The notes beneath the pieces were generated by a model. The model worked only from the letters and a program-made list of their open reading frames with translations. It had not been told where the DNA came from and searched no databases. 64,000 nucleotides of DNA from Paraburkholderia sp. (GTDB lineage: Bacteria > Pseudomonadota > Gammaproteobacteria > Burkholderiales > Burkholderiaceae). The position numbers and the translations under genes are program-made. Location of the stretch: NCBI GenBank assembly GCA_004322045.1, contig SCRN01000009.1, positions 206,209 through 270,208 of the forward strand. Direction: 5' to 3'. This document shows positions 37,516 through 43,836 of the stretch, one piece after another. Numbering within the stretch: the stretch's first letter is position 1; the number at the start of each line of letters is the position of its first letter.

Positions 37516-38431
37516 TCGAACCCTTCGGGTGCTCAAGAGACTATTGCGCGCCGAATTCATGGTTGCTTAGGTTGGGACGGGCGACTATAAATGTATCGCT
37601 CCTCGGCAATATTGCACCGCACCAATGATTAAATTGATAGTCAAGCCGAGCCTTGAATGAAACCATTAACCGGCCAATGCATGAAACGTATAGCTAGAAA
37701 TCCATCTTCAAGCAACAACATACGCACTATCCTGAAACCTTCTGATTAGCAGCACTGATACCGTACAAACCCATCAAACACGGGAATTACCGGAAAACCT
37801 TTATGATTATGACCTCCAGCCCAGCAAATCAGCAATGAGCGGGCGCTTCATCACATCATCAACGACAACCAAAATTGACAATATAACGTTAAATAGCGCA
37901 AACAAACATTTCCAAAATTCGTCGAAAAAATTTTGACAAAAATATTCATTCTGGTAAATTGACCACGTCGACTTGATACCGACCCAAGCTTTTTTTGACG
38001 GGAAGCGTTTCTTGCGCTTCACCGGCAAGTATTTCTCTATTTATGAGAGGGTACTTTAGCGAGGTTCGCAATGCGGCAAGTTGCGCAGTGGGTATTGGCA
38101 AGGCAATGGGAACAGCGGGCGACTGTTTTGGTCCGCAATTCGCGTCACAGCGCCAGGGGAAAGCAAGTCGCCCGCGGCCTTCTGCGGGTTGCCAGGGTTC
38201 GCCCTCCAGCGCGCCGAACCCCGGGCCATTGCCGACGCCCTCGTAACCCCCTAGCGCGACCGGGACTGCCCGTCGTTTATACAGCCCTCCTACTCCCTTC
38301 ACAATTTGGCGCGAAGCCAGCTTTGCTTAGACCGCCAATCAGCGCCACAGCTTCAGTGAGTGAATTGCTGCCGTTGCAGTGCGCCCGTCGCTTCTGGCCG
38401 CCCATTATCGGGTCTGCGTTGGGAGTCCGAC

Positions 38432-39839
38432 TTTGAAGAGGACAATTCACTCAGTCGTGGAAATTCCCATCGTCGAAGGCCTTCTGGGTGCGAGCCTTCC
38501 GTTTCTGTTTCTCAAAGACGGGGAAATCAGCATTCTTTCATTGGCGTGGGTGCGGCATCGAACCCTCTACGAACTGGTCTCGCCGGCTGAAATCTCAGCG
38601 GGCGTACACGCCGTCGGCCTACTCTACGACTTTTACTATCTCGCTGAGCAAGGTCGAGCAGTCACAGCGAACGAGCTTGGCGGAGTTCTCGCACGTTTCA
38701 TGGACGCGCGAGAGCATGGGCTTGCTATGCTTCGCTGGAATTCCGTGAGACGAAAAACTGCCATTGATGACGTCCGCCGGGTAAGCAGCTTCGGTGAATT
38801 CTGTACCGACAACTTCGGGCACGCCCCACTGAACCAGCGAGAGACGAAGTTCGTCAAGGACCTAAATTTCGCCGAGCAAAGACGGTTCTATCATGCGTTA
38901 GAACATCGAAAAGAGTGGGACAAGCTTGCGCACTTGGTCGATGCGACTGTGGTCGGCCGAGGAAAAGTGAATCGGGGAAAGTTCGACCCCAAAGAGCGCC
39001 GTCTCAAAGCAAGCTACGAACGAAAGACCTTTCCTCCAGAGAAAGTTCTGCCGCTAATTAACGCGACTACTTCGGTCCGCGACAAGTTGTACTTGATTCT
39101 ACTTTTCTTCGGAGGCCTTCGTTCGTCAGAGCCACTACATCTGTTCGTGACCGACATCACTGTCACGCCCAGTGGCAGCGCTGTTGTCACACTGGGCGAC
39201 CCCGAGACCGGCTCTTACGACTGGAGCAACTTGTATCGCGGCAAGCAGCACGGCAATCGTGCGACCTTCCTTGCGGAACGGTACTCCCTTGGACCGAGGA
39301 GCAAACTGGGCAAGAAGCATCCCCTGCACGTTGGCTGGAAGGGGATGGCGTACGACAACGAAGCTCGCAACGAGTCCGAAGTCAATTGGCTAGTACCAGA
39401 AATAGGAAGGTACTTCGCAAGGCTGCATTTCCAGTACATGCATGAGACGCGCAAGCACGTCCCAGATGAGCATCCTTACTACTTCGTCAACGAAAAAGAT
39501 GCCGACAACTTCGGTAGTCCTCTGACACTGTCCAACACAGCCAAGATGTTTGAGCGCGCGGCGCGTCGGCTCGGCCTGGACCCCGCCGAAGACGGCGTCA
39601 ATCGCCATGGTGCCCGGCACTTTTACGGCCACTTCTGCGCATCACATCTTCGCCTGCCGCTTGAGGTGACTCAAAGCATCATGCATCACGCGAACATCCT
39701 ATCGACGAAAATTTATTACGCGCTCGACCAAGCAGTGGCTCGCGATGAGCTTAAAAAAGGCTTTGCACGCATTCAAAGCGAGCTTCCATCCCTTTGCGCC
39801 GACATCGAGCGCGTATCGTTCTCGAGACATTACCAATGA
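38432..39839 (+). CDS. gmtY: Tyrosine recombinase, GmtY-like
   Basis: GGLRSSEPLHL; HGARHFYGHFC...MHHANILSTKIYYALD; first gene of coupled trio (start 38379 or 38432). Confidence 0.82.
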
Positions 39840-42800: not shown

Positions 42801-43189
42801 ACCAGATTACCCAAATGAGTTCTTTCTCTACCTGCTTCAGCAACCGTGAGGCCGAGCTGGAAAAAAATACAATCTTGTCAAAGCTGATGGCCGCGAATGA
42901 TATGAAGCCGTTCTTGCTTGACCTAAATGACGAACATGCTCACGAGGCCGGGAATTTGCTTTCGTCCTTGATACTCCAACAGGTACGCGGCCAAGAGCTT
43001 GACGACCTCCTATCGGGCCGGAAGGCGCTTAATGACTATCCTCGGCTTGCGAAAGCCATCAAGCTACTTGAGGAAAATGCGACTCCGGAGGCGCTAATGG
43101 ATTCCAAACAGATGAGTCGATTGGTCACGCTGGTCGGCAAAGCGGCCGGGCCATCCGCTACAGCTGAGGAAGAGGAGACGTTTGCATGA
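39836..43189 (+). CDS. gmtZ: Large tyrosine recombinase/integrase, GmtZ-like
   Basis: ATGA overlap with gmtY; LHSLRVSGITNLIEAGVPLEVVQMFVAGHQTLIMTLHYLKYS; Cys cluster CPGTSC...CGLC. Confidence 0.82.
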   Translation: MTVRYFKATGSGRDVAFNDSDTEFVLLKEPTVDEIRDAIIEFEKKRIEAYWEETIVKQAPSGNFINAFKSSKHSRGVTVPQFYKARYLSALLVTITNLRGRELIAAARELPLELQRSFVRAARPNTRKELRNMLVLPAQVIAPDFHALLDSSDSTREFVERLVQGLWTNDLPLMHPFRHFELLVILWARGWFLFPQRVGDWDTPVKWPTLKNQLYGGTRSGLIASTYVMPKHRRSDMTHSITCTFFATTDVTSFDDLSPELIDAFQDIWDATIATRYANSDEKSRSTARSGMRRAMRLLRQNFNVSHPDHAVPLKSSKKSHVVDDERRVDGEFRWLVTSRPQLIAWADMFRAFIKSLKTQRVSAQMDRLNSLGDYLVSLKEPPLAPKNVNRQKHIYDATLKNPETYFEHIRKKYGSSRRLNDTISTIRSFFDWSRDYLVASGDISAASLANPISISDTFGRPRPSSKTARDALPPYIMNEMKQVLLDDDFAFPRTHSRAVVQVHDSVTGANTRVFDPGLTVCLYTLFDTPIRSHQARWLDSGLLDEKVYDPASNSLLPNESPYSIKGRREAALRLQHDGLRAESWLTLWVNTNKTAQYDSPHIGYSIPYVSSKLAELLHMYSEWQKRYMPALTKPLEYRVYQDDVRERDRPAGVKGPQIVPLFRDPYSADLYRPIEYPRLARFYVKVLEQTQKRIEAKYGHRLTLVENDKKGGLKWVVDLHSLRVSGITNLIEAGVPLEVVQMFVAGHQTLIMTLHYLKYSPTKLRKFLLEAHEKMLNDQNFVGSELFASSLHEFAPFLLGQEGAGVGAGFVALQERTGILTITSEGICPGTSCSTGGPLMSAAQNSYLPVPGGKRCGLCRFWMTGPAHLLGQVTAVNNLAFVIRKKGLEVARINDERLDAEDSDNKRRARELRDRGDILNRELEIDVNEWVARYRYAEKSVALMADYLAAKNRVTGKRDQVPVPVLTASSGPELRVTLEQAHEFALLDQITQMSSFSTCFSNREAELEKNTILSKLMAANDMKPFLLDLNDEHAHEAGNLLSSLILQQVRGQELDDLLSGRKALNDYPRLAKAIKLLEENATPEALMDSKQMSRLVTLVGKAAGPSATAEEEETFA

Positions 43190-43836
43190 ACCAAGCCGCT
43201 GTCGTTGATAACTTGTACGCTGAGTTGGTCTCTGCTTCTAGGAATCCACGTCAACTTGAATCGCTAGAAAAAATTAAGAAGGCATGTGACTATTTGGAAG
43301 AACAGGGACTCCGAGTCACCCTCACAGCCATCGAGCATTACTGCGTGGACCGAGAATGGCGAGGACCTAAAGCTCAATCCATACGAAATTCGAAAGTTTT
43401 ACGCCACTACGTTGAGCTTCGACAGTCTGCTCAAGGTGTGACTTCTTCGCGCGGAACAAGACGCACCGAGCCACTCATCGCTGACGAAACTGTGCGCTCA
43501 TATGTCCGGGTGCTTCAGGAAGAACGCGACCAAGCGGTAGCGGCTCGCGCCCGTATCGAGGCAGGCCTCCGCTCGATTCCCGGCATCCCTGTGGATGAAC
43601 TCATTAGGGTGGGATTTGGAGGTGGCGCATCGTCGATTTCCAAGCCCGCAAACTCCACTTCGTTGCCCGTTGCCGCAAAAGACGCGCTCGAAAAACTTTT
43701 CGACACAAACATCCTCGCAAATTGCGGCCTGCAACTGCACAAGGACCGTATCCGACAAGCTATAACAGGAAATGTGCTTCTCGAGAAACACCACGTCGCC
43801 GCACTCCGCGCGCTGACAGCCCCCGAAGAGAGCTAA
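43186..43836 (+). CDS. gmtX: GmtX-like trio protein
   Basis: ATGA overlap with gmtZ; LESLEKIKKACDYLEEQGLRVTLTAIEHYC...RGPKAQSIRNSKVLRHYVELR. Confidence 0.8.
   Translation: MNQAAVVDNLYAELVSASRNPRQLESLEKIKKACDYLEEQGLRVTLTAIEHYCVDREWRGPKAQSIRNSKVLRHYVELRQSAQGVTSSRGTRRTEPLIADETVRSYVRVLQEERDQAVAARARIEAGLRSIPGIPVDELIRVGFGGGASSISKPANSTSLPVAAKDALEKLFDTNILANCGLQLHKDRIRQAITGNVLLEKHHVAALRALTAPEES

What the first reader, a model, noticed from the sequence alone, without database searches (positions are those of the whole stretch)
38379..43836. Gamma-Mobile-Trio-like (GmtY-GmtZ-GmtX) module in a Burkholderia-type genome
Three genes with ATGA overlaps encode a ~486 aa tyrosine recombinase, a 1131 aa second tyrosine recombinase with a Cys cluster, and a 216 aa small protein. 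Order, sizes and motifs match the GMT trio described in Vibrio and other gammaproteobacteria as the signature of mobile islands rich in anti-phage systems and T6SS effectors. The surrounding core genes are clearly Burkholderiales, so this would be a betaproteobacterial GMT-type element with end structure visible in the sequence.
Basis: partly seen in the sequence, partly recalled or inferred. Interest (0 to 1): 0.85.

Follow-up and report, generated by a model that had tools for sequence, protein, structure and literature searches.

The report
Defence island built on GMT-like recombinases
A 33.9-kb mobile DNA island full of probable virus-defence genes has inserted itself into one exact spot of a metabolic gene, using three recombination proteins that are distant cousins of the known Gamma-Mobile-Trio, and comparison of eight such islands exposes the ends they use and the 6-base trace they leave.

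Summary
Three overlapping genes encode two tyrosine recombinases with intact active sites (468 and 1117 aa after correcting the starts) and a 216-aa helical protein. All three match the NCBIfam GmtY, GmtZ and GmtX models over nearly the whole model, but every score is below the curated cut-off (215/340, 271/600, 34/40). On the GmtZ tree they fall outside the clade of NCBI-named GMT members. This is therefore a GMT-like sister lineage, not GMT in the strict sense. Betaproteobacterial GMT is not new either: NCBI already names gmtX/gmtY in Polaromonas and Burkholderia glumae.

New here: the element is 10043-43946 (33,904 bp, defence-type cargo) and splits an FMN-binding glutamate synthase-like gene at the base pair used by five related elements in other Burkholderiaceae; 24 relatives have the site empty. 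Ends are imperfect inverted repeats with AATAGTTG boxes. Across eight elements the 6 bp beside the gmtY-side end always match the empty host site, while the 6 bp beside the other end are foreign-looking in four. That is the footprint of Tn554/SE-type transposition. A sister clade carries a replacement copy of the gene it breaks. Unexplained: the window's cargo lies between the left end and gmtY; in the relatives gmtY abuts that end.

The parts
10037..10042 (.). attL 6-bp spacer CGGTGG (host-like)
   Evidence: Same 6-mer as the empty site of the closest relative found (L046); attL 6-mers match empty sites in 8/8 elements
10043..10072 (+). Left end (C): TTATTTACCCCATACTCGCCCAACTATT
   Evidence: Aligns with left ends of L106, L002, L008 (p<=0.0005 by shuffling; L004 p=0.03; L104 not significant); imperfect inverted repeat of the right end (0 of 5000 random stretches as good)
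43865..43946 (+). Right end (C'): AATAGTTACGCAACTATTA ... TAATAGTTGGTAGTTGAGGTTTTTAA
   Evidence: Same anatomy and spacing (79-81 bp from palindrome to host) in L002, L004, L106, L105, L104
43947..43952 (.). attR 6-bp spacer CCGTGG (differs from attL)
   Evidence: identical to empty sites of three other same-genus genomes (L048, L050, L052)
8791..10042 (+). 5' part of the split target gene (FMN-binding glutamate synthase-like)
   Evidence: 96% aa identity to intact L046 protein, residues 2-418
43949..44329 (+). 3' part of the split target gene
   Evidence: 98% aa identity to intact L046 protein, residues 416-541; contiguous in 24 empty sites
38433..39839 (+). gmtY-like tyrosine recombinase (468 aa, TTG start inferred)
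   Evidence: NCBIfam NF040693 215 bits, cut-off 340; active-site residues conserved
39836..43189 (+). gmtZ-like large tyrosine recombinase (1117 aa) with Cys4 cluster
   Evidence: NF047926 271 bits, cut-off 600; PF13009 78 bits, cut-off 25; residues conserved
43186..43836 (+). gmtX-like helical accessory protein (216 aa)
   Evidence: NF040692 34.1 bits, cut-off 40; predicted helical N-terminal domain plus long central helix
18666..24659 (+). Cargo: DUF4011/helicase/MTES_1575 nuclease/DUF3320 protein (PADLOC PDC-S37, Hhe-like)
   Evidence: PDC-S37 1363 bits; 59% identical protein in the same-site element L003/L104
25948..28743 (-). Cargo: KAP P-loop NTPase (weak PifA/QatA-like N-terminus)
   Evidence: PF07693 E 6e-24; PADLOC PifA/QatA E 3e-11
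31151..32596 (-). Cargo: AbiJ_NTD3 protein with weak RAP-type C-terminus
   Evidence: PF18860 E 2e-42; PF08373 E 0.003, below its cut-off
33163..37170 (-). Cargo: 1335-aa TPR/PIN protein of the TPR-GreAB-C-PIN type
   Evidence: PF20698 E 7e-25
15658..16476 (+). Cargo: calcineurin-like phosphoesterase
   Evidence: PF00149 E 6e-11
10685..10921 (-). Cargo: small Xre-type regulator just inside the left end
   Evidence: PF01381 E 2e-15

Best explanation
This is a 33.9-kb site-specific mobile island (10043-43946) moved by a GMT-like trio. SHOWN: the ends are imperfect inverted repeats (C on the left, C' on the right) with AATAGTTG/CAACTATT boxes. The island sits between codons for ARGFMFA and VGCIQ of an FMN-binding glutamate synthase-like gene, at the position used by five related elements, with a 6-bp exchange region. 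INFERRED: GmtY and GmtZ, both with complete tyrosine-recombinase active sites, cut 6 bp apart at C and C'. GmtX binds DNA and/or the recombinases as an obligatory helper, the part that TnpC, Srap and GinD play in Tn554, SEs and GInts. The end-to-end junction (circle or transfer intermediate) carries the 6 bp from beside the left end of the old site. On integration those 6 bp are placed beside the new right end, while the target's own 6 bp stay at the left end. The cargo (PDC-S37/Hhe-like helicase-nuclease, KAP NTPase, AbiJ-type protein, TPR-PIN protein) is a defence reservoir paying for the broken gene. In this genome the element came from another site of the same gene carrying GCC instead of GCG for the alanine (attR CCGTGG, attL CGGTGG). 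Whether it still moves is not shown.
For: Empty site contiguous in relatives and split in the window. Six elements at the same base pair: window, L106/G842, L002, L003/L104, L004, L008/L105, monophyletic on the GmtZ tree at 100/97; the sister clade, which uses other targets, is supported at 100/99. Conserved end anatomy; inverted repeat beyond chance. 6-mer test: attL matches empty sites 8/8, attR 4/8 (CAATGG, TCATGG, GCGTGA, GCGTGG unmatched). Active sites conserved. SE and Tn554 6-bp rule and TnpC/Srap requirement from PMC10214605; GInt 6-nt staggered cuts from PMC5385486. Cargo families.
Against: No excision, circle or transposition data. The footprint direction rests on 5 informative elements, two of them close relatives (one-sided sign test about 0.03). 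Empty sites come from relatives, not the same strain. The right end of L003 is degenerate. In the window the leader between the left end and gmtY, conserved in relatives (CTATTATACT then Shine-Dalgarno), is replaced by 28 kb of cargo, so this copy could be inactive or composite. The GmtX fold had no significant PDB match.
Confidence: 0.72

Rival explanations
1. Ordinary cut-and-paste integrative element (ICE/IME type): the 6-bp differences are Tn916-like coupling sequences that can end up on either side, with no strand bias.
For: Imperfect 6-bp repeats at the ends are also expected for coupling-sequence integrases; GInts leave an empty site in some strains.
Against: In all five elements where attL and attR differ, attL is the host-like one; no Xis-like gene was recognised; two recombinases plus a small helper parallel the Tn554/SE/GInt sets.
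Confidence: 0.2
2. Composite or decayed island: two elements of the family met at one site and deletions left the left end plus cargo of one, and the trio plus right end of the other, so the trio no longer mobilises the 33.9 kb as a unit.
For: In relatives the trio abuts the left end and cargo lies beyond gmtX; in the window cargo lies between the left end and gmtY and the right end starts about 30 bp after gmtX. The upstream leader is not homologous to relatives. One weak left-end-like stretch at 38276 (p=0.012 against one of six queries).
Against: Both outer ends are intact and typical; no second internal end is significant in scans of the whole island; only one trio is present and all its ORFs are intact.
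Confidence: 0.3
3. True Gamma-Mobile-Trio island, simply a divergent betaproteobacterial member.
For: Same gene order and near-full-length matches to all three models; close relatives carry a VPA1267-family gene after gmtX, scoring 169 bits against a cut-off of 90, and NCBI already calls the relative P0126 GmtX.
Against: All three proteins are below the curated equivalog cut-offs and GmtZ lies outside the clade of NCBI-named GMT members.
Confidence: 0.3

Closest known systems
Gamma-Mobile-Trio (GMT) islands (Mahata et al. 2024; NCBIfam NF040693, NF047926, NF040692)
   Same: Gene order Y-Z-X with overlaps, homologous proteins, defence-rich cargo; VPA1267-family gene next to gmtX in close relatives of this element
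   Different: Scores below all three cut-offs; separate GmtZ clade; no T6SS effector recognised in the cargo scanned; GMT paper itself not held, so its ends and targets could not be compared
Strand-biased circularizing integrative elements (SE)
   Same: Two tyrosine recombinases, small auxiliary protein, imperfect inverted-repeat ends, 6-bp fingerprint/footprint, recombinase operon at one end
   Different: SEs have a fourth protein, Tfp, between the recombinases, absent here; SE Tfp/Srap homologs were reported only in Gammaproteobacteria (PMC10214605)
Tn554 (TnpABC)
   [quoted passage not shown] site-specific; 6-bp footprint
   Different: Known from Staphylococcus/Enterococcus; GmtX gave no match to any Pfam family; much smaller element
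GInt islands (ginABCD)
   Same: Operon at one end, cargo of tens of kb, insertion into a conserved protein-coding gene, 6-nt staggered exchange
   Different: Four genes with three recombinase-fold proteins; none recognised in this trio

Membership tests
Gamma-Mobile-Trio (GMT) | GmtY over NCBIfam cut-off (340 bits) | tested here: not met
   215.1 bits, E 2.2e-63
Gamma-Mobile-Trio (GMT) | GmtZ over NCBIfam cut-off (600 bits) | tested here: not met
   271.2 bits, E 1.6e-80; Polaromonas and Marinobacter GmtZ reach 650 and 671
Gamma-Mobile-Trio (GMT) | GmtX over NCBIfam cut-off (40 bits) | tested here: not met
   34.1 bits; relative L004 reaches 44.2
Gamma-Mobile-Trio (GMT) | Order gmtY-gmtZ-gmtX with overlaps | tested here: met
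Gamma-Mobile-Trio (GMT) | GmtZ grouping with NCBI-named GMT members | tested here: not met
   Separate supported clades, 100/99 against 99/99
Gamma-Mobile-Trio (GMT) | Offensive (T6SS effector) cargo | tested here: inconclusive
   Defence-type genes found; no T6SS effector family among about 20 ORFs scanned
SE elements | Four core genes intA-tfp-intB-srap | tested here: not met
   Only three overlapping genes; no recombinase-fold protein between the two recombinases
SE elements | 6-bp fingerprint/footprint between ends and host | tested here: met
   Sequence comparison of 8 elements and 31 empty sites; not tested by experiment
SE elements | No empty site after end-to-end recombination | not testable with these tools
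   Needs PCR or sequencing of cultures
Tn554 | Homology of the helper to TnpC | tested here: inconclusive
   GmtX has no Pfam match and no significant fold match
GInt | ginABCD, three recombinase-fold proteins plus GinD | tested here: not met
   Two recombinases and one helper
RIT elements | Three tyrosine recombinases of about 315-410 aa in series | tested here: not met
   Third gene is not a recombinase; second is 1117 aa

The most novel reading that the evidence does not exclude
GMT-type trios are a broad class of Tn554/SE-like copy-out transposons. [quoted passage not shown]
Probability: 0.35. Interest if true: 0.72.

Novelty: new variant of a known kind. Interest (0 to 1): 0.55.

Why it matters
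GMT islands are recently described carriers of anti-phage systems. This lineage gives base-pair-exact ends, a named coding target, many empty sites and eight junction pairs, so the transposition mode of the trio (cut-and-paste or copy-out with a strand-biased 6-bp tag) becomes directly testable. It also suggests that three- and four-protein tyrosine-recombinase islands (Tn554, SE, GInt, GMT) share one mechanism, and shows a way for an island to insert into a protein-coding gene and supply a replacement.

Tried and rejected
Internal second left end near 38276: significant against one of six queries only (p 0.012), rejected as unproven. Trio remnants in the cargo: none. VPA1267-family gene in the window: best hit in the genome E 0.88, in ORF 12316-12867, not accepted. 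A clade-specific N-terminal extension of GmtZ: rejected, GmtZ lengths of 870-1280 aa occur across the family and the NCBIfam model covers only the core. An attL-plus-left-end pattern search of 400 Burkholderiales genomes found only the window. The viral-contig search gave no answer. SE reference accessions tried were not held. The GMT paper was not held. GmtX fold search gave no significant match.

Full report
OBSERVATION. The three ORFs exist and overlap by ATGA. Corrected genes: gmtY-like about 38433-39839 (TTG start, 468 aa), gmtZ-like 39836-43189 (ATG, 1117 aa), gmtX-like 43186-43836 (216 aa). NCBIfam places all three in the GMT models over nearly the full model, but below every curated cut-off: GmtY 215.1 (340), GmtZ 271.2 (600), GmtX 34.1 (40). 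Pfam gives Phage_integrase for Y and Integrase_2 (PF13009) for Z; X has no Pfam family. In 39-40 relatives the residues R, K, H, R, H, Y of GmtZ and R, R, Y of GmtY are essentially invariant, with H410 of GmtY in 36 of 39, and GmtZ has four near-invariant Cys. The trio looks intact.

EXTENT. A low-GC block runs from about 10 kb to 44 kb. At its left edge an FMN-binding glutamate synthase-like ORF stops matching relatives after ARGFMFAV; at the right edge the rest of the same gene resumes. The gene is uninterrupted in 9 same-genus and many other genomes. The element is 10043-43946, 33,904 bp. Its ends are imperfect inverted repeats, TTATTTACCCCATACTCGCCCAACTATT and TTAAAAACCTCAACTACCAACTATT (0 of 5000 random stretches as good).

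RELATIVES. One genome-wide scan and targeted searches gave five further elements at the same base pair: L002 Burkholderia sp. E7m39, L003/L104 Ralstonia sp. SET104, L004 Paraburkholderia sp. BL9I2N2, L008/L105 P. panacisoli (its two ends on different contigs), and L106 in genome G842. Their right ends share one anatomy: AATAGTTG..CAACTATTA, about 40 bp, AATAGTTG, then a T-rich stretch to ATAA or TTAA. On a maximum-likelihood GmtZ tree these six form a clade (100/97). The sister clade (100/99) contains L005 and L006 (in an HD/AAA-domain gene) and L007 (next to an aminotransferase gene). The NCBI-named GMT members L109-L112 are in another supported clade. Trios occur well beyond Gammaproteobacteria, including alphaproteobacteria and a verrucomicrobial MAG, and NCBI already names gmtX/gmtY in betaproteobacterial plasmids.

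THE 6-BP FOOTPRINT. Between host and element lie 6 bp on each side (attL/attR): window CGGTGG/CCGTGG; L106 CGGTCG/CGGTCG; L002 CGGTCG/CGGTCG; L004 CGGTGG/CAATGG; L008 CGGTGG/TCATGG; L003 CGCTGG/CGCTGG; L005 CCGTGG/GCGTGA; L006 CCGTGG/GCGTGG. Against 24 empty glutamate synthase-like sites and 7 empty HD-gene sites, attL is found 8/8 times and attR 4/8. In the window attL equals the empty site of the closest relative found (L046) and attR equals that of three other same-genus genomes. In SE and Tn554 elements the target keeps its 6 bp at the left end and the donor's left-flank 6 bp arrive at the right end (PMC10214605); GInts show 6-nt staggered exchange (PMC5385486). The data fit that rule. With five informative elements, two of them closely related, this is suggestive, not proof.

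REPLACEMENT GENE. L005 and L006 carry, between gmtX and the right end, a full 385-aa HD/AAA gene, 71-73% identical to the host gene they split. The window element carries no such copy of its target.

MINIMAL ELEMENTS. L002, L004 and L106 are about 8.6-8.8 kb: Y-Z-X, a small protein (VPA1267 family, 168.8 bits against cut-off 90 in L004) and a RecD2-type helicase. By its numbering the VPA1267 family comes from V. parahaemolyticus island VPaI-6 (VPA1253-VPA1270), which also named the VPA1269 (GmtZ) family, so the set is probably shared with the Vibrio type.

CARGO OF THE WINDOW. Xre regulators, DSP-like and calcineurin-like phosphatases, a 1997-aa PDC-S37/Hhe-like helicase-nuclease (59% identical homolog in L003/L104), a KAP NTPase, an AbiJ_NTD3 protein and a TPR-PIN protein: a defence-type load. 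None was tested for function.

UNEXPLAINED. In the relatives whose ends were mapped gmtY lies near the left end (about 130-300 bp) and cargo follows gmtX. In the window 28 kb of cargo separates the left end from gmtY, and the right end starts about 30 bp after gmtX. No second internal end could be shown. Either cargo was gained on the unusual side, or the island is a composite that lost parts. This decides whether the present copy still moves.

VERDICT. A GMT-like sister lineage: it works like a Tn554/SE/GInt-type site-specific transposon by sequence evidence, is not a strict GMT member by the cut-offs, and is a new variant of a known kind.

Noticed in passing
L002, L003, L004, L106, start of gmtY: No ATG/GTG/TTG at the homologous start; a Shine-Dalgarno-like stretch is followed in all four by a conserved ATC codon, suggesting initiation at AUC, a rare start that could keep the recombinase low.
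   Followed up: partly
L005 14088-15242 and L006 8461-9615: Elements in an HD/AAA-domain gene carry a complete diverged copy of that gene beside the right end, apparently a replacement for the gene they split.
   Followed up: yes
L002, L004, L106, downstream of gmtX: VPA1267-family gene plus RecD2-type helicase follow the trio in the small elements; absent in the window.
   Followed up: partly
window 30408-31058: ORF starting like an SOS-response-associated peptidase (recalled resemblance) but with no Pfam hit and an abrupt loss of similarity, perhaps a broken gene.
   Followed up: no
window 12316-12867 and about 15300-15600: Two stretches encode similar C-terminal segments (LAMADGDLGHEYW-like), suggesting a duplicated small gene in the cargo.
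   Followed up: no
L025 (Magnetospirillum aberrantis) 1473-7820: Two trio fragments in tandem on one small contig, as expected if elements stack at one site.
   Followed up: no
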